A stretch of DNA of 64,000 nt, taken from positions 1,211,662 through 1,275,661 of the forward strand of contig NZ_FOAF01000001.1 in assembly GCF_900109575.1 (NCBI RefSeq). The letters run 5' to 3'. Every line of letters starts with the position of its first letter. Positions within the stretch are counted from its first letter, which is position 1. A model generated the notes under the pieces. That model was not told the DNA's origin. It did not search any database and saw only the letters and a program-made list of their open reading frames with translations. Of the stretch, positions 1,891 through 24,790 are shown in pieces. The stretch is from Olivibacter domesticus (GTDB lineage Bacteria; Bacteroidota; Bacteroidia; Sphingobacteriales; Sphingobacteriaceae). A program made the translations under genes and the position numbers.

Positions 1891-1920
1891 TAAGGGGGAA
1901 ATTGACCGTTTCCCCCTTTA
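1891..1920. terminator. Bidirectional stem-loop terminator
   Basis: An inverted repeat with arms TAAGGGGGAAA and TTTCCCCCTTTA around a loop of about 7 nt lies between the convergent sulfatase and the 70-aa minus-strand gene. It reads as a T-rich-tailed stem-loop in both directions. The rest of 1692-1942 shows no convincing gene. Confidence 0.6.
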
Positions 1921-1942
1921 CCGTTTCACTCCATTGTAGAGA

Positions 1943-2155
1943 TCACTTGTCCTCTTTCGCAACGGTAGATATTGCCGATGCGACAATTCCTGCAGTAGCC
2001 AGGTAACCGGCTATGCTTATTACCGTTACCGGTAAGGTAATGGGAGCTGCCAGTAGCGCTCCCCCTATTGCTCCTAAAGTTAAACCTATTGTTCTTATTT
2101 TTTTGAAGAACTTTGGTGTGGGAGACTTTATTCTATCAGTTATTTCAGTTTTCAT
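1943..2155 (-). CDS. Small membrane protein, unknown function
   Basis: A 70-aa protein starting MKTEITDRIK. Its basic N-terminus is followed by two hydrophobic segments rich in Gly, Ala and Ile (about residues 22-40 and 42-62), so it probably crosses the membrane twice. A start 21 nt further up (2176) is possible, but this ATG gives the cleaner N-terminus. It is the last of five small minus-strand genes (1943-5764) that include a holin-like protein and a DUF5675 protein. That company suggests a relict phage or lysis-type module. I recognise no named family, and function is unknown. Confidence 0.55.
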   Translation of the reverse strand: MKTEITDRIKSPTPKFFKKIRTIGLTLGAIGGALLAAPITLPVTVISIAGYLATAGIVASAISTVAKEDK

Positions 2156-2264
2156 AATTTTTGATTTAAGTATCAAGACATAAGTATTAAGACATAAGGC
2201 TTCATATATCAGATATAAGCATCAATGTATCAATTGTAATAACTAATTTAACTAAACTAAATAT

Positions 2265-2480
2265 TTACATTTTTCGCTCTAAAAATTCCATCCGCTGTCG
2301 TAGCAGATTGTAATTCGATTTCAACTCAGCTTTCATCAAGCGAATACTCGCTTTCATGAAGCTCATATCGTTCTCCATCTTCTTAAAGTTTCCATGTAAC
2401 TGTTTTAGGAAATAAGCTATAATAGAGAGTAGTATACTGATTACTGTACCTAGTAATGTTATTAATTCTGGTGTTTTCAT
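2265..2480 (-). CDS. Small holin-like membrane protein
   Basis: A 71-aa protein with one N-terminal transmembrane segment (residues 4-23, LITLLGTVISILLSIIAYFL), then an amphipathic, charged, probably coiled-coil tail (25-71). This one-TM-plus-helix layout resembles small holin-like or phage-associated membrane proteins often found beside DUF5675 genes in Bacteroidota. The upstream region is a structured repeat element rather than an ordinary promoter. Holin function is inferred from topology and neighbourhood only; no sequence motif proves it. Confidence 0.5.
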   Translation of the reverse strand: MKTPELITLLGTVISILLSIIAYFLKQLHGNFKKMENDMSFMKASIRLMKAELKSNYNLLRQRMEFLERKM

Positions 2481-2505
2481 TGTTTTTTAATTAAAAATGT
2501 TTATT

Positions 2506-2760
2506 AACTTTTCGCTTGATCGAAAAGTTACAAAAGATCAAGGCTCCATGGACTTCGCTAAAGATTCAGGTCTTACCCACAATCCTGTGCAGCCGCGCCT
2601 ACGCACATCCTCACCCTTCGCTTCCTCACATGATTTTTGGCCCATAGCTATCCTGAATCTTCTTTACGCTCATCCGCCAGTGGGCGGACAAGTTCCTTAT
2701 GAGGCCGGTCGTACTAGCGTGCCGTAGCTGACTATTGCATTACCGTTAATATTTCCGTCA
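2506..2760 (+). repeat. Structured interspersed repeat, copy R1
   Basis: First copy of a roughly 220-bp element. It opens with a perfect 9-bp hairpin (2506-2514 with 2521-2529) whose loop is CTTGAT. The segment GATCAAG at 2536-2542 is complementary to CTTGATC at 2515-2521, so a pseudoknot can form. A long-range inverted repeat AAGATTCAGG (2561-2570) / CCTGAATCTT (2652-2661) encloses the middle part, and a TCCGCC/GGGCGGA hairpin follows. Copies R2 (3476) and R3 (4870) share most of the sequence. The open frame through it (2497-2727) is not taken as coding. Confidence 0.8.
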
Positions 2761-2945
2761 CTGCGAGGCATCGGTATGTGTGAGCCGTGGCAGTCTCTCT
2801 CGCAACTCATAACGGGCAACTCACAAATATTAAATGAGGTCGTTCCTGCTAGTGTGCTGAAGCTTTAAATGAAATCGTCATGTCCGGAATGAAATGGAGT
2901 GGAGAGATCTCAAACAGACCCTTCGACTCCGCTCAGGGTGACGTT
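2757..2945. repeat. Mixed short interspersed repeats
   Basis: A stretch built of short repeat units: a unit starting GTCACTGCGAGGCATC that resembles the common Bacteroidota intergenic repeat; an AACTCATAACGGGCAACTC unit that recurs near 3735; and a unit CGTCATGTCC...CAGGGTGACG (2888-2942) with inverted ends. Together with 2481-2760 it fills the gap between the holin-like gene and the DUF5675 gene. No gene is seen here. Confidence 0.6.
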
Positions 2946-2999
2946 ATTTAGCAATGCAACATGCTACTCAACTATTTTCCTACTTAACGATTCCACAAC

Positions 3000-3443
3000 T
3001 CAACAATTTAACGTCTCAACCATTAACCTCCTCCCTTCTTCAGCGGCTTGTACTAGTAAAGGATAAACCCTTTTATAGGCATCAGCCGAATGGAGCACAC
3101 GGTAATCTCCATTCACCAGTTGATAGTAACTCCCAGTGAGAAGACAACCTCTTGTATCCGTATGGTAATTACCGATATGAAAGAATACCAATGTAAATTC
3201 TGGTATTCCTTTTATCTCTACCATCCCTTTATGAATAGAAGCATATCTAACTGAATATTTGCTATTCATACCAGCTGTTTTATTTAAAACAAGAGGATAG
3301 TTGCCCGCTGGGATAGCGGTTTCTCCGGGAATTTTCTGTTCCCTTATTTTATCTTCCAAGATGTAACATTGAAAGAGGTCGTTAATATATAACTGACCGA
3401 GTGTAGTATGTGCGCCTTCGGCGATTCTTAATAGTTTTATCAT
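3000..3443 (-). CDS. DUF5675 family protein
   Basis: A 147-aa protein starting MIKLLRIAEG. It matches the DUF5675 pattern: a short beta-rich domain with LEDKIRE, IPAGNYPL, GMVEIKGIPEF, FHIGNYHTDTRGCLL and a closing VNGDYRVLHSADAY segment. The family occurs in bacteria and phages and its activity is unknown; a cell-wall role has been suspected because of its neighbours. The start was placed at 3443 because the upstream extension would be encoded by repeat element R2. It sits between the holin-like gene and a 195-aa unknown, consistent with a relict phage-like cassette. Family call is good; function is open. Confidence 0.75.
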   Translation of the reverse strand: MIKLLRIAEGAHTTLGQLYINDLFQCYILEDKIREQKIPGETAIPAGNYPLVLNKTAGMNSKYSVRYASIHKGMVEIKGIPEFTLVFFHIGNYHTDTRGCLLTGSYYQLVNGDYRVLHSADAYKRVYPLLVQAAEEGRRLMVETLNC

Positions 3444-3475
3444 TTTCTTATTTATTTTCTTAACTATTTTGTTCC

Positions 3476-3790
3476 ACTTTTGGCTTGACCCAAAAGTTAG
3501 CAAAAGGTCAAGGCTACATGGTCTTCGCTAAAGATTCAGGTCTCACGCGCAATCATGTGGAGCCGCTCCTACGCACATCCTCACCCTTCGCTTCCTCACA
3601 TGATTTTCAGGCCATAGTTATCCTGAATCTTTTTAACGCTCATCCGCCAGTGGGCGGACAAGTTCCTTATGAGGCCAGTCCTCCAAGCGTGCCGTAACTG
3701 ACTATTGCATTACCGTTAATATTTCCGTCACTCGCAACTCATAACGGGCAACTCACAAATATTAAATGAGGCCAGTCCTGCAAGCGTGCC
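3476..3790 (+). repeat. Structured interspersed repeat, copy R2
   Basis: Second copy of the element. Hairpin ACTTTTGG (3476-3483) / CCAAAAGT (3490-3497) has loop CTTGAC. GGTCAAG (3506-3512) pairs perfectly with CTTGACC (3484-3490). Relative to R1 both helices carry compensatory changes. The body is nearly identical to R1, including the GATTCAGG/CCTGAATC and TCCGCC/GGGCGGA inverted repeats, and then runs into the GCCGTAACTGACTATTGCAT tail and an AACTCATAACGGGCAACTC unit. The open frame 3485-3697 is treated as non-coding. Confidence 0.8.
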
Positions 3791-3932
3791 GTAGTCTTAG
3801 CTATCGTTTACTAGTTCACTGGCCTCTAATAACCAATAACTGACAACAAGTAACTAAAGGAACGTGCCGTAGTTTACATATCCGTTTTCGTTAAAAGTTT
3901 CCTGGGCACAAGGCCCAGAGAACTTTTGATTG

Positions 3933-4520
3933 TTACGGGTTGGTGTCTTCTCCATAACTTTTCACCTCGGAGTAGGTATTGCCGGGCGTGTCGGTCATGG
4001 TCACTTTGATGATACTATTCGTATAGTCGGTATTATCAACCGTAGCTGTGTAGTACCATTCGATGCCCTGGGTATCGACGTTCTCTGCATAGCCTGCCTC
4101 GATAATCGCTCCTTCTTCATCTTGAATCTCGACCATCACTTCTTTTACCATCAATACGTCTTTTATTAAAATGGATACTAGATCGCCTATCACTCCATTA
4201 TAAGCCCTATCGTCTAAACGTCTAATGGTTGGTGCGGTGTAGAAATCTTTAAAGGCTACATTATAGGCTGTTTGATTGATGTTTGCCTTCGCTTGGTAAG
4301 CTGCCTTTAACTCCGGATTCTCAATGGCCTTACGTGCGTAAAGCGATGCATCTAAGAAACGGTTCTGCACTCTTAACTGGTCGGGTGAATAGATACGCTC
4401 GGCACCGTTTCTCGGTCTACGGGCGATGATTGTTTTGTCGCCACGCTGACGGAATACCAACATCTTTCCTACTGTTCCGCTTGCTCCCTGCATTACTACA
4501 TTGTCTCTCGATTTTGCCAT
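3933..4520 (-). CDS. Conserved Bacteroidota hypothetical protein
   Basis: A 195-aa soluble protein beginning MAKSRDNVVMQGASGTVGKM, followed by VFRQRGDKTIIARRPR. This opening is shared by a family of unnamed Bacteroidota proteins, which I recognise only as conserved hypotheticals. The middle part (85-125) is helical and Asn/Ala-rich. The C-terminal part (about 105-190) reads as a beta-sandwich-like domain. No signal peptide or catalytic motif is visible. It belongs to the small-gene cluster with DUF5675 and the holin-like gene; a structural or phage-derived role is only a guess. Confidence 0.65.
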   Translation of the reverse strand: MAKSRDNVVMQGASGTVGKMLVFRQRGDKTIIARRPRNGAERIYSPDQLRVQNRFLDASLYARKAIENPELKAAYQAKANINQTAYNVAFKDFYTAPTIRRLDDRAYNGVIGDLVSILIKDVLMVKEVMVEIQDEEGAIIEAGYAENVDTQGIEWYYTATVDNTDYTNSIIKVTMTDTPGNTYSEVKSYGEDTNP

Positions 4521-4748
4521 GATCTTAATAATTTTTAATTGTTAAAAAATCTGTTCATGTAAGCTTTTCCGGGTACCCATTCGTCTGACTTACAAGGGCA
4601 AAGGTTAATAAAATATTTTATAAATTATTGATTTTCAGCTTGTTGAAATGATTTTAGAAGATTTATGAAGGATTATGAAGAATATTGATTTTTTTATGTG
4701 CTTTTTCTTACAGATTTTTCTTGTCCTTTATGCTTGAAAATTTTCTCA

Positions 4749-5075
4749 TCCTTTTTCTTGAAAAAAAGGATCAAACCGAGAAGCTCTGCTTCGAGCTCAT
4801 GAACACCTTTGAAACAAACAAATGGTGAATAAATTCAAGACTTCATAATCTTCGCTAAAGATTTTTATTGTTCTTTATGCTTGAACATAAAGAACCAAAC
4901 ATTCAAGGCTTCATGGTCATCGCTAAAGATTCAGGTCTTACGCGCAATCCTGTGCAGCCGCTCCTACGCACATTCCTACCCTTCGCTTCCTCACAGGATT
5001 TTCAGGCCATAGCTATCCTGAATCTTCTTTACGCTCTTTCCATGAGGCCTGTCCCGCATTCGTGCCGTAGTTTTA
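4749..5075 (+). repeat. Structured interspersed repeat, copies R4 (decayed) and R3
   Basis: R4 keeps the hairpin TCCTTTTT (4749-4756) / AAAAAGGA (4763-4770) with loop CTTGAA but has a short, diverged body. R3 begins with a 10-bp hairpin GTTCTTTATG (4870-4879) / CATAAAGAAC (4886-4895), loop CTTGAA, and has TTCAAG (4902-4907) complementary to the loop. Its body carries AGATTCAGG and CCTGAATCT but lacks the TCCGCC/GGGCGGA hairpin of R1 and R2. The gap 4521-5467 holds these repeats, further AACTCATAAC-type units and the tandem repeat below. No gene is supported. Confidence 0.75.
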
Positions 5076-5224
5076 TTTGGCGGTTTACTAGTGCGCCCGC
5101 CTCTCACAACTGGCAATTCACAACCATTAAATGAAGCCGGTCCTGCATGCGTGCCGTTACTGACTATTGCATTGGCGTTAATATTGGTATCACGCACAAC
5201 TCATAACTACAACTCATAACTTAA

Positions 5225-5414
5225 TGTTGCCTTGTCTCCTAATAACCAATAACGGGTAACGAATAACTAATAACCAATAACGAATAACTATAATATAGAC
5301 AGGGCTTAGGCAGTACTGAAGCAGGGTCCTTATAGGGTCAGTGCAGGAAGATTGTATAGTGGTTCTATAGTGAAGCTAGCAAGAAGCTATAGTCATCCTA
5401 GCAAGAAGCTATAG
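5225..5414. repeat. Short tandem repeats
   Basis: Around 5225-5290 variants of AATAACCAATAACG recur. At 5376-5392 and 5398-5414 the 17-mer CTAGCAAGAAGCTATAG occurs twice with a 22-bp period, preceded by related TCTATAG units. These are non-coding and lie just beyond the end of the 98-aa minus-strand gene. Confidence 0.6.
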
Positions 5415-5433
5415 CGGGGCTAGGCTCATTATA

Positions 5434-5466
5434 GGCTGCAACGACCGTGTGCGTTGCAGCCTTTTT
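5434..5466. terminator. Strong stem-loop beyond the 98-aa gene
   Basis: A perfect 10-bp stem GGCTGCAACG (5434-5443) / CGTTGCAGCC (5452-5461) with an 8-nt loop and TTTTT on the plus-strand side. It lies immediately after the stop of the minus-strand gene at 5468, so it probably ends that transcript, although the T-run faces the other way. Confidence 0.55.
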
Positions 5467-5467
5467 G

Positions 5468-5764
5468 TTAGCGATCGCGCAGTGTATTGCGGATGGCTTC
5501 TATTACTTCATTTTCGAGATATATGTCTTTGCCGTCGAGATCATATACTTTAAGTATCTTTTTCTTTTTGAGATGGTAAAGCTTGGTATCTCCTATTTTA
5601 AGCATGATTTTTATATCGGCATTATCCAGCACCTTTACGGAGGCCTGCGCGCATTGCGCGCAGCTATTTGGTGCATTATTCTGCACGAGGATTGCTTTTA
5701 ACAAATCGTGAATGTTTATTAATGTTTTAAGAATAAGTTTGCCTATAAGGTTGAATTGCTTCAT
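5468..5764 (-). CDS. Hypothetical protein with CAQCAQ motif
   Basis: A 98-aa protein. The N-terminal third (1-30) is hydrophobic and helical, the middle has NSCAQCAQAS, and the C-terminal half is a charged alpha/beta segment ending in IRNTLRDR. The Cys pair is encoded by a 19-nt palindrome of GCGC units (arms CTGCGCGCA / TGCGCGCAG). That raises the possibility that a small palindromic repeat inserted into the frame. No family recognised. It is the first gene of the 1.9-5.8 kb minus-strand cluster, although 947 bp of repeats separate it from the next gene. Confidence 0.5.
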   Translation of the reverse strand: MKQFNLIGKLILKTLINIHDLLKAILVQNNAPNSCAQCAQASVKVLDNADIKIMLKIGDTKLYHLKKKKILKVYDLDGKDIYLENEVIEAIRNTLRDR

Positions 5765-22318: not shown

Positions 22319-22401
22319 CTATGTTTATACTAGTGAAAACAGGTTTCATTGATTGAATGAAAATATTATATTTAACCAATTTTCGATTTCAAATTAGCCA
22401 A

Positions 22402-23250
22402 ATGGAAATTGTTACTTCAATAACTAAACTGACTAAAATTTTCAAGGATAAGAGATGGTTCGACAAGGACTTTGAAGAGTTTGCCTTCAACAATTTCTGC
22501 GAGTTACTCCAAGTCCTGAGCCCGGAAGAAAGACTACTGGTTCTAGAACTTACGGAACGTTATCTTTGGATTCCGGCCGGAGAATATGTCGAAAACATAG
22601 CCAACGCTTTTAACCAGATGCCTCCAGAAGCACTAACAGGCATAAGCAAAATATACCTATTTCCGATATCCAAGCCATCAGATGCCGAAAAAATTAAAAG
22701 TGCTGTCAGTTTGCTTTACGACTTTAAGTCCATGAGTTTCAAACTTTCTCGTTACTTAGGAAAACAGTTCAAGGTAGTTAATAGCTTTGAGGAACTTCAG
22801 CCACCCTTTGAATTGAAGGAAAATGAATTGCTCTTTCTGGTAGATGATTATATTGGCGGCGGAAGAACAGTAAACGCCTGCATGGAAGAAATATTTAAGA
22901 ATGAGAAAATCAGTGTTGCGCAGACAGCCATCGCTGCAATCGGATGTCAGCTGGAAACTTATCATAAGCTAATGGATGCCGGGAATAAAGTATATTGCGC
23001 GAATATCCTTCTAAAAGGAATAACTGGGTATGATCAACCTGACCTCGCAGCAAAAAAGATAGCGATAATGAAAGTAATAGAAGACTCAATTCCCGGCTCT
23101 AAGAAGTTTAGTTTAGGATGGGAGGAATCAGAGGGGATCATTACCCTAAAGCGCACGCCAAACAATACCTTTCCGGTATTCTGGAAAAATATTAAGCGCC
23201 ATGGCAAGACTTTACGGGCACCATTTTTAAGAATAGAGAACTTCAGCTAA
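22402..23250 (+). CDS. Retron-associated phosphoribosyltransferase-like effector
   Basis: A 282-aa protein with a type I phosphoribosyltransferase fold. The PRPP-binding motif is visible as LLFLVDDYIGGGRTV (residues 143-157), the equivalent of the VDDxxxTGxT loop. An N-terminal helical region (1-75) precedes it. With the next gene (winged-helix-like) and the reverse transcriptase downstream, this is the gene set described for type III retrons (PRTase plus wHTH plus RT). In those, the PRTase is the presumed toxic effector held in check by the RT-msDNA complex. The ATG at 22402 was preferred to 22357. It shares one nucleotide with the next gene. Confidence 0.75.
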   Translation: MEIVTSITKLTKIFKDKRWFDKDFEEFAFNNFCELLQVLSPEERLLVLELTERYLWIPAGEYVENIANAFNQMPPEALTGISKIYLFPISKPSDAEKIKSAVSLLYDFKSMSFKLSRYLGKQFKVVNSFEELQPPFELKENELLFLVDDYIGGGRTVNACMEEIFKNEKISVAQTAIAAIGCQLETYHKLMDAGNKVYCANILLKGITGYDQPDLAAKKIAIMKVIEDSIPGSKKFSLGWEESEGIITLKRTPNNTFPVFWKNIKRHGKTLRAPFLRIENFS

Positions 23251-23570
23251 TGACAACAAAAAATAAAGTGTTACTCCTGCGTATCATCCATGAGGGTGGA
23301 GACATCAAATTGCTTCGGCATCACAACATATCGTTCCGCGAAATCGGAGAGATGGTAGAAACTAGCATTGACGAAGGACTTTTGACGAATTCAGACGACA
23401 TCATAACCCTCACCGACCAAGGTAAAGGATTCCTGGACAGCAATATAGGCATAATCAAGGAGCGGGATAAGTCCAAATGGATTGAGTTGGACATGAAAAA
23501 TAAAATTAGGAAATTAGACAAGGATGAAGTATTTTTACCTGCACAGAATGCTTTGTCATTCTTAAAATAA
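23250..23570 (+). CDS. Retron-associated small winged-helix-like protein
   Basis: A 106-aa protein whose first 75 residues read as a winged helix: VLLLRIIHEGGDIKLL, SFREIGEMVETSIDEGLLT, then the wing ITLTDQGKGFL. A charged helix follows, and it ends DEVFLPAQNALSFLK. The start overlaps the stop of the PRTase gene (TAATGA-type junction), so the two are translationally coupled. Small DNA-binding-like partners of this type accompany PRTase retrons. Its role in recognising msDNA is inference. Confidence 0.7.
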   Translation: MTTKNKVLLLRIIHEGGDIKLLRHHNISFREIGEMVETSIDEGLLTNSDDIITLTDQGKGFLDSNIGIIKERDKSKWIELDMKNKIRKLDKDEVFLPAQNALSFLK

Positions 23571-23572
23571 TT

Positions 23573-23744
23573 CCCCCGGTTTTCCGGGGCGGGTGGATGT
23601 TGTCATCCCCCTTGTAAGTGAACAGGCTTTCAAGCTTGTGGATTAAACATAAACCAAAAGTCTCCTCCCCAAAGGGGCCCCTCCGACATTTTGCTTCATG
23701 TTTAATCCATTGTTTAAAGGAGCCTAAAACAAGTTTTAGGCTCC
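23573..23744 (+). ncRNA. Candidate retron msr-msd RNA
   Basis: The 188-nt gap between the winged-helix gene and the RT start is densely structured. Hairpins are CCCCGG/CCGGGG (23574-23589), GGATG/CATCC (23595-23608) and CCCC/GGGG (23667-23677). Complementary 12-mers TGGATTAAACAT (23639-23650) and ATGTTTAATCCA (23698-23709) enclose one hairpin. A near-perfect hairpin GGAGCCTAAAAC/GTTTTAGGCTCC (23719-23744) follows. Retron ncRNAs usually sit just upstream of the RT. I cannot assign the a1/a2 ends or the branching G with certainty; the 12-mer pair alone would give an unusually short RNA. Confidence 0.6.
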
Positions 23745-23758
23745 ATAAAAAAGATCAA

Positions 23759-24790
23759 ATGAACTTCGCTCAATACGAAAAGAAATTCAGGTTAAAGGCG
23801 TTGAAATCAGGGTTTTCTGAAGACAATATTGTAGCCTGTCTAAACTATGCGAAACCAATTTTAGAAAAAGGTTTGCCGGTAATCTACAACACCGCAAATC
23901 TAGCTGCTCTGGTCGGATACAGGACGACTTATTTAAAGCGTGCAGCTAAATTCACCAAATTCTACTACCGCTCTTTTACAATTAAAAAAAGTAACGGAAA
24001 GCTCCGAACTCTGATGGAGCCGCTACCCAGCCTTAAAGAAATCCAAACCTGGATACTGGAGAACATGTTGTCAGAAATCCCTGTCAGCAAATTTGCAAAA
24101 GCTTATGTAAAACACCGGTCACTGAAAGAAAACGTAAAACACCACAACAACAAGGAGGGAGTACTGACTTGCGACATCGCCACATTTTATGATTCAGTGC
24201 GATTTAAGGATATTGAAAAAATTTTTAACGAATTGGGATATTCCGAAGTGATGTCCAACTTACTTGCCAAGTTGACTACCTTCAATGGATCCCTTCCCCA
24301 AGGCGCACCAACCAGTCCATACCTATCGAACCTAGTTTTGAGGGAATTTGACCAAAAGATATCTGACTACTGCATTAACAATAATATCCGATATACCCGC
24401 TATGCAGATGACCTTACATTTTCTGGCGAAGTCAAATCACTGAAACTAAAGAATCTAGTCGAAGCAGAATTGAATAAGCTTGGCCTTGAGCTAAACCCAG
24501 ATAAGACCAAACTCAGAAAATTCAGTCAACGGCAAATGGTAACTGGCATCGTAGTTAACGAAAAGACACAAATCCCAAAATTTGAAAGGAATTTTATCAG
24601 AAACGAAGTACATTTTCTGACCAGATTCGGATTGAAAGACCACCTACGCAAAACAAAAAACAAACGTGAGAATTATCTTTTGCACTTGCTAGGCAAAATA
24701 AATTTTGCGCTGCACATCAATCCAGCGGATAAAAAAATGGAATCTTATAGATCACAGGTCCAGAAAATCATTCAAACGGATGCCGGCTAA
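23759..24790 (+). CDS. Retron reverse transcriptase
   Basis: A 343-aa reverse transcriptase with retron hallmarks: an NAxxH-like N125-V-K-H-H in the fingers, QGAPTSPYLSNLVL, catalytic YADD at 215-218, and the retron VTG motif at 261-263 (QMVTGIVVNE) leading into the msr-binding C-terminal part. It reverse-transcribes part of a structured RNA into msDNA and, with PRTase and winged-helix partners, would form an anti-phage system. The start at 23759 was chosen because the longer frame from 23618 translates through the structured RNA region. The 3' end abuts a broken AraC gene, suggesting that the retron inserted there. Confidence 0.9.
   Translation: MNFAQYEKKFRLKALKSGFSEDNIVACLNYAKPILEKGLPVIYNTANLAALVGYRTTYLKRAAKFTKFYYRSFTIKKSNGKLRTLMEPLPSLKEIQTWILENMLSEIPVSKFAKAYVKHRSLKENVKHHNNKEGVLTCDIATFYDSVRFKDIEKIFNELGYSEVMSNLLAKLTTFNGSLPQGAPTSPYLSNLVLREFDQKISDYCINNNIRYTRYADDLTFSGEVKSLKLKNLVEAELNKLGLELNPDKTKLRKFSQRQMVTGIVVNEKTQIPKFERNFIRNEVHFLTRFGLKDHLRKTKNKRENYLLHLLGKINFALHINPADKKMESYRSQVQKIIQTDAG

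What the first reader, a model, noticed from the sequence alone, without database searches (positions are those of the whole stretch)
2506..5075. A repeat family whose hairpin and loop-downstream pairing both covary
Four copies (2506, 3476, 4749, 4870) begin with a hairpin whose stem sequence differs in each copy (AACTTTTCG, ACTTTTGG, TCCTTTTT, GTTCTTTATG, each with its exact complement), while the loop CTTGA(T/C/A) is kept. Downstream a segment changes in step with the loop: CTTGATC/GATCAAG in R1, CTTGACC/GGTCAAG in R2, CTTGAA/TTCAAG in R3. This double compensation points to selection on a folded (pseudoknot-like) RNA or single-stranded DNA, not on protein. A long-range GATTCAGG/CCTGAATC pair and inner hairpins follow. 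It may be an RNA-mobilised or REP-like element.
Basis: seen in the sequence. Interest (0 to 1): 0.75.

Follow-up and report, generated by a model that had tools for sequence, protein, structure and literature searches.

The report
Folded, mobile-looking DNA repeat of Bacteroidota
The window holds three full copies and one partial copy of a non-coding repeat that keeps the same folded shape while its letters change, is found in many members of one large bacterial phylum, and looks like a mobile DNA element whose helper enzyme is not yet known.

Summary
Copies lie at window 2505-2707 (R1), 3476-3677 (R2), 4748-4863 (R3, a 5' part only) and 4870-5050 (R4). Each starts with a hairpin (P1) whose loop pairs with a downstream TCAAG (a pseudoknot head); three have a long folded body. 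A covariance model finds 37-41 copies in this genome and matches in 30 of 60 genomes searched, this one included. On 56 distinct genus copies covariation is 0.496, against 0.160 for shuffles (0 of 500 reach it) and at most 0.105 for slid registers. The head occurs across Bacteroidota with different bodies. No Rfam family matches. No orientation or replication-strand bias and no linked gene were found. Y1/RAYT transposases are absent from the four genus members that carry copies; 1 of 40 Y1 loci examined has heads close by. In one genome, units have terminal inverted repeats, and 12 of 20 show 8-10 bp target duplications. G.U pairs are rare, so RNA is not demonstrated. Best reading: an apparently undescribed, MITE/REPIN-like non-autonomous element whose folded single strand is recognised by an unknown trans-acting factor.

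The parts
2505..2707 (+). R1, full element (head, P2, P3, P4, closing strand)
   Evidence: CM R1 hit C10:1214166-1214368, 160.7 bits
2505..2530 (+). R1 hairpin P1 with loop CTTGAT 2515-2520
   Evidence: sequence
2537..2542 (+). R1 pseudoknot partner ATCAAG
   Evidence: sequence
3476..3677 (+). R2, full element
   Evidence: CM R1 hit C10:1215137-1215338, 155.1 bits
3476..3497 (+). R2 hairpin P1 with loop CTTGAC 3484-3489
   Evidence: sequence
3507..3512 (+). R2 pseudoknot partner GTCAAG
   Evidence: sequence
4748..4863 (+). R3, 5' part only: P1, inserted domain, pseudoknot partner 4834-4839, start of body; the rest is missing
   Evidence: sequence; the inserted domain recurs at other loci
4870..5050 (+). 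R4, full element
   Evidence: CM R1 hit C10:1216531-1216711, 179.3 bits
4870..4895 (+). R4 hairpin P1 with loop CTTGAA 4880-4885
   Evidence: sequence
4902..4907 (+). R4 pseudoknot partner TTCAAG
   Evidence: sequence
4907..5049 (+). R4 body: P2 GGCTTCATGG (4907-4916) with CCATGAGGCC (5040-5049), internal-loop strand CGCTAAA, P3 GATTCAGG/CCTGAATC, P4 inside
5051..5290 (+). 3' tail: a GTGCC block and degenerate AACTCATAAC-type words; not part of the aligned fold
   Evidence: sequence; similar tails at other copies

Best explanation
A family of non-autonomous, non-coding mobile elements of Bacteroidota, of the MITE/REPIN sort. SHOWN: (a) a conserved fold: P1 hairpin, loop-to-downstream pairing (5-6 bp) directly next to P2, an A-rich linker, and in the genus type a body of covarying stems around fixed internal-loop strands; (b) many copies, presence/absence between related genomes, tandem and inverted pairs, and in one genome terminal inverted repeats with target duplications. 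INFERRED: one strand of the element, single-stranded at some step (probably DNA), folds; the pseudoknot head and internal loops are the recognition marks for a factor acting in trans, so stem letters can drift as long as pairing is kept; copying spreads it and old copies decay. The enzyme is unknown; no Y1/RAYT gene was found in the genus members that carry it.
For: Copies: 37-41 matches in G000, 37 in G001, 10 in G004, 3 in G003, 0 in G002. Presence/absence: a cluster with the same gene order as that holding R1 and R2 has no element in G001 (L190; read, no head in the scan); the GNAT-BamD gap holds one in G000 and none in G001, which has one on the other side of GNAT. G074: 55 matches to the P1-loop pattern, control 1; 18 of 21 sampled also have the partner TCAAG; 13 selected copies align closely over the whole unit. 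12 of 20 units bounded by inverted repeats CTGAnTATCCGC have direct repeats of 8-10 bp (shuffled flanks mean 1.2, max 6 of 20); 12 of the 20 units hold an intact P1 pattern. Head pairs within 900 nt: 17 tail-to-tail, 13 tandem, 6 head-to-head. Covariation far above controls. G.U 25 cells against A.C 60 of 2019, leaving out one invariant T.G pair. No orientation bias towards flanking genes.
Against: No transposase sharing the ends was seen: 20 further G074 stretches, chosen from the 70 TIR hits, were only read for ORFs and showed no obvious one (no family search on them). Clean TIR/TSD was seen in one genome only; 0 of 18 tail-to-tail pairs elsewhere show a target duplication at the P1 borders. 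A DDE transposase would not need an inner fold, so the fold and the G074 ends may have separate origins; other G074 copies have the same head and body with different 3' parts. No replication-strand bias (85 of 167 loci), unlike single-strand elements of the IS200 kind. MFE z-scores slightly favour the + strand (-3.58 against -3.12 in 110 heads drawn at random), which an RNA would also give.
Confidence: 0.5

Rival explanations
1. Mobile element whose fold works as RNA: the transcript is the moving or recognised form, or protects the element.
For: H-type pseudoknot with an A-rich linker is a classic RNA form (recalled); MFE z on the + strand lower in 74 of 110; T.G pair kept in 53 of 56 rows at columns 80/261.
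Against: Few G.U pairs (25 cells) and more A.C (60), counted without the invariant T.G pair, while 12 tRNAs of the same loci show 15 G.U of 247 and no A.C (a small control); no promoter motif above control upstream of P1 (12 and 12 of 197); no link to RT.
Confidence: 0.2
2. Stems are kept complementary by mutation, not selection: template switching at quasi-palindromes copies one arm from the other, and modules are swapped by recombination between copies.
For: Changes on both sides (455 cells) far exceed one-side changes (22 by my sum), with little G.U; R1 and R2 share P1 and the flanking gene with C10:1525716 and C10:1526745 but have different bodies.
Against: It does not explain fixed loop and partner (CTTGA/TCAAG), the kept internal-loop strands GCTAAA and TTAACG-type (18 of 109 against a mean of 0.3 in shuffles), or covariation at the outermost loop-partner pair (20 T-A, 14 C-G, 3 A-T; 9 unpaired).
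Confidence: 0.13
3. A family of structured non-coding RNA genes with a fixed cellular role, multiplied by duplication.
For: Strong conserved fold; mostly outside long ORFs.
Against: Zero to 37 copies within one genus, presence/absence at corresponding gaps, damaged copies, head joined to different bodies.
Confidence: 0.1
4. REP/REPIN elements mobilised by a RAYT (TnpA-Y1), such as the Bacteroidetes subclass 2.6 said to be flanked by atypical secondary structures (PMC6006769, passages).
For: Dispersed hairpins, inverted pairs, Bacteroidota; one Y1 gene (G005:C53) has heads beside it, and another (G024:C96) has one about 2.3 kb away.
Against: No Y1_Tnp match in four carrier genomes of the genus; 19 of 30 carriers against 14 of 30 non-carriers have Y1; 39 of 40 Y1 loci examined without heads within 700 nt (the head finder asks for a clean P1, so decayed heads would be missed).
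Confidence: 0.05

Closest known systems
REP / BIME / REPIN elements with RAYT (TnpA-REP)
   Same: Intergenic, multi-copy foldback repeats, often as inverted pairs; stem letters vary more than shape.
   Different: Genus copies here are about 120-200 nt with a pseudoknot head and multi-stem body, and no RAYT was found in carrier genomes of this genus; REP are 21-65 nt (PMC6006769 passage) and often GTAG- or CGTC-tagged (PMC3733652 passages).
MITEs
   Same: Non-coding, many copies; in G074 terminal inverted repeats and 8-10 bp target duplications in 12 of 20 units.
   Different: Covarying inner fold with a head shared across the phylum; no parental IS found.
STAXI motif (PMC2864571, passages)
   Same: Pseudoknot repeated in tandem, for which its authors discuss both ssDNA and RNA.
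   Different: STAXI is frequently near genes for ssDNA-binding proteins, integrases and the like (passage); no linked gene was found here and no Rfam match (whether STAXI has an Rfam model was not checked).
IS200/IS605 ends
   Same: Subterminal hairpins read as folded single strand (PMC6006769 passages).
   Different: Y1 genes not linked, no replication-strand bias.
Integron attC sites
   Same: Fold is kept while letters change (recalled).
   Different: Element sits in either orientation to genes; no integrase search was made.

Membership tests
REP/RAYT (REPtron) | cognate Y1 (RAYT) gene in the carrier genome | tested here: not met
   0 PF01797 matches in G000, G001, G003, G004; in other genera 19 of the 26 other carriers do have a Y1 match
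REP/RAYT (REPtron) | repeats flank the Y1 gene | tested here: not met
   1 of 40 Y1 loci examined has heads within 700 nt (the covariance model was run on the first 20 only)
REP/RAYT (REPtron) | GTAG or CGTC tetranucleotide at hairpin foot | not tested
   no count made
MITE | terminal inverted repeats | tested here: inconclusive
   present in G074 (20 units); not searched for systematically around the window copies
MITE | target site duplication | tested here: inconclusive
   12 of 20 units in G074; 0 of 18 tail-to-tail pairs elsewhere at P1 borders
MITE | parental autonomous transposon with same ends | tested here: inconclusive
   no obvious transposase ORF in 20 G074 stretches chosen from the 70 TIR hits; no Pfam run on them
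Known Rfam RNA family | match to a covariance model | tested here: not met
   0 at gathering in the window; 2 and 5 scattered sub-threshold matches in 6 and 9 loci
cis-regulatory RNA (UTR element) | constant orientation to a neighbouring gene | tested here: not met
   168 of 237 heads have both neighbours: orientations 54/46/36/32
IS200/IS605-like single-strand element | replication-strand bias | tested here: not met
   85 of 167 loci with positive GC skew in element orientation (local skew of the fetched stretch only)
Retron / RT-borne element | co-occurring reverse transcriptase | tested here: not met
   RVT_1 in 13 of 30 carriers, 12 of 30 non-carriers

The most novel reading that the evidence does not exclude
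A phylum-wide class of mobile element defined by a pseudoknotted, covarying fold of a single strand (most likely DNA) with one constant head and interchangeable bodies, mobilised by an enzyme that is neither a Y1/RAYT nor a reverse transcriptase, and overlooked because it has no gene and no constant sequence.
Probability: 0.3. Interest if true: 0.85.

Novelty: new variant of a known kind. Interest (0 to 1): 0.62.

Why it matters
One exact head variant (31 specified bases) gives at least 119 stretches in a species-level genome scan; 74 of the 80 titles shown name Bacteroidota. Yet no Rfam model matched the copies tested, and in the rows listed by eight literature searches I recognised no description of it; the library lacks most subscription journals. 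If the fold is a recognition mark, G074, with 55 P1-loop matches, offers a way to find the enzyme and to ask whether chromosomes use folded single-stranded DNA as an address. At the least the model gives a way to mask and annotate a recurrent repeat of Bacteroidota genomes.

Tried and rejected
RAYT hypothesis: tested by presence and neighbourhood; rejected for this genus. Reverse transcriptase link: rejected. cis-regulatory element: rejected by orientation. Linked gene: all-against-all of 614 ORFs within 1.5 kb; the largest cluster spans 6 loci (response-regulator-like), which I did not take as a link. Replication-strand bias: none. Promoter: none above control; the 10 nt before P1 are T-rich. 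Plasmids, phages, viral contigs: no match with the queries tried (one head pattern, one body from this genome, one from Bacteroides luti). First genome contigs pattern (a genus-type body motif) gave 0, so a head pattern was used. Strand test by mismatch type: 60 A.C against 25 G.U cells, but by distinct pair and kind about 25 against 18 (my count), so I do not claim the minus strand. The P1 mismatch count comes mostly from loci fetched with P1 in the pattern and is not used as evidence. Phylum pattern: 47 of 118 genomes have a match, but single matches are near background; by my count 23 of 118 have at least 3, while the reversed control never exceeds 2. The G074 alignment left out copies with other 3' parts or a damaged head. 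Literature search for the head letters listed only papers that looked unrelated.

Full report
WHAT IS THERE. The window is G000:C10:1211662-1275661 of a 6.78 Mb genome in 23 contigs. R1 (2505-2707), R2 (3476-3677) and R4 (4870-5050) are full copies; R3 (4748-4863) is a 5' part that runs into R4. They lie between short genes on the minus strand, one of which is DUF5675; the four other short neighbours tested have no Pfam match.

ANATOMY. Order on the + strand: P1 hairpin (mostly 7-11 bp, T-rich 5' arm, A-rich 3' arm) with loop CTTGAn; an A-rich linker, often CAAAA; TCAAG, which pairs with the loop; directly after it P2 (GGCTnCATGG / CCATGAGGCC, with a T.G pair in 53 of 56 distinct rows); an internal loop with strands CGCTAAA and TTAACGC; P3, whose letters change completely between subtypes (GATTCAGG/CCTGAATC, ACCAGCTT/AAGCTGAT and others); and an inner P4. 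R3 and some other copies carry an extra domain between P1 and TCAAG, and the loop-partner match is kept across it in R3 and several others.

IS IT MORE THAN CHANCE. A model (R1) from 16 own copies finds 41 places in this genome at E<=1, 37 at E<=0.01 with stricter filters. Covariation on 16 copies: 0.479 against 0.171 shuffled and at most 0.149 slid. On 56 distinct copies from four genomes of the genus: 0.496 against 0.160 and at most 0.105; 31 of 39 pairs have a change on both sides, all 10 P1 pairs among them (this alignment was fitted to the model for P1-P4, but not for the pseudoknot). To lessen circularity I built a body-only sequence profile and looked upstream of 51 hits: 30 have a perfect P1 of at least 7 bp against 1.6% of shuffles, and 26 of them also have the loop partner; the loci searched had partly been fetched with queries that include P1. 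In 109 distinct bodies from the genome-wide head scan, chosen by head alone, 42 have at least 11 of 14 complementary bases between body start and a downstream stretch (1.1% in controls), and 18 have GCTAAA followed by a TTAACG-type motif (mean 0.3, max 2 in shuffles, 0 reversed). So most bodies elsewhere (91 of 109) lack that motif pair.

WHERE IT OCCURS. 30 of 60 genomes at E<=0.01, the window's own included, of which 4 of 5 genus members. One exact head variant gives at least 119 stretches in the species-level genome collection; of the 80 titles shown 74 name Bacteroidota of several orders, the rest Melioribacteraceae (1), Calditrichia (3) and an unassigned bacterium (2) (placement by title only). 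0 in viral contigs for that pattern, 0 in plasmids and phages for the bodies tried.

SIGNS OF MOBILITY. A cluster with DUF5675 and the same neighbours in G001 has no element; in G003 an element sits upstream of DUF5675 in the same place and orientation as R2 but with different P1 letters. Head-to-tail arrays occur in G001 (units mostly 362 bp, another of 531 bp) and in G057 (about 310 bp). Head pairs within 900 nt in the held loci: 17 tail-to-tail, 13 tandem, 6 head-to-head. In G074 the longer units are 472-482 bp with inverted ends, and 12 of 20 units have direct repeats of 8-10 bp at their borders; shorter units of 99-161 bp with the same ends also occur, and 8 of the 20 units lack an intact P1 pattern. 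R1 and R2 share P1 and the flanking gene with C10:1525716 and C10:1526745 but have different bodies, so modules appear to recombine.

WHICH STRAND, WHICH MOLECULE. Setting aside the invariant T.G pair, 25 cells are G.U and 60 are A.C of 2019; 12 tRNAs of the same loci have 15 G.U of 247 pairs and no A.C (a small control, and its program favours standard pairs). This is unusual for an RNA helix set and suggests DNA, but counts are inflated by descent. Folding z-scores favour + slightly. I leave the strand open.

MECHANISM. Shown: fold, copies, spread. Inferred: single-stranded folding and recognition in trans. The enzyme is unknown. A resident RAYT was not found in the carrier genomes of this genus, and the Bacteroidetes subclass 2.6 with atypical structures (PMC6006769, passages) remains the nearest published lead; I could not compare its structures letter by letter.

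KNOWN OR NEW. No Rfam match. In the rows listed by eight paper searches I recognised no description of it; papers consulted by passages: PMC6006769, PMC3733652, PMC2864571, PMC9769881, PMC4596501; a find in PMC2267715 gave no mention of Bacteroid-, Porphyromonas or Cytophaga. I rate it a new variant of a known kind (MITE/REPIN-like repeats), with a novel core: the pseudoknot head.

Noticed in passing
window 22357-24790: PRTase (PF24390; PADLOC PRTase_III-A) next to a reverse transcriptase (PADLOC RT_III-A, E 7.6e-140), i.e. a likely type III-A retron defence locus.
   Followed up: partly
window 5051-5290; L142; L190; L254: Degenerate 'word' repeats (AACTCATAACTCACAAC..., CAATAACTAATAACC...) follow the 3' side of elements and also fill element-free gaps; other species have other words.
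   Followed up: no
window 5189-5633 with G000:C4:96445-96895 and C10:445817-446059: A block (ATATAGACAGGGCTTAGGCAGTACTGAAGCAGGGTCC...) recurs downstream of two other elements at 84-86% identity.
   Followed up: no
window 1892-3532 and G000:C10:1525102-1526803: Paralogous gene cluster with the same small genes in the same order.
   Followed up: partly
L424, L425, L426, L428, L431, L434 (G074): Short units of 99-161 bp with the same inverted ends as the head-bearing unit, apparently inner deletions.
   Followed up: partly
window 2919-2943; L162 5320-5360: Related sequences CCTTCGACTCCGCTCAGGGTGAC and CCTTCGACTGCTTCGAGCTCAGGATGAC, of a kind familiar from many genomes (recalled), lie next to elements in two distant genera.
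   Followed up: no
sequences of L139, L249, L292: Outer inverted repeat CGCTCAATTGCCGCGG beyond P1 on both sides in L139, and a similar flank next to heads in L249 and L292.
   Followed up: no
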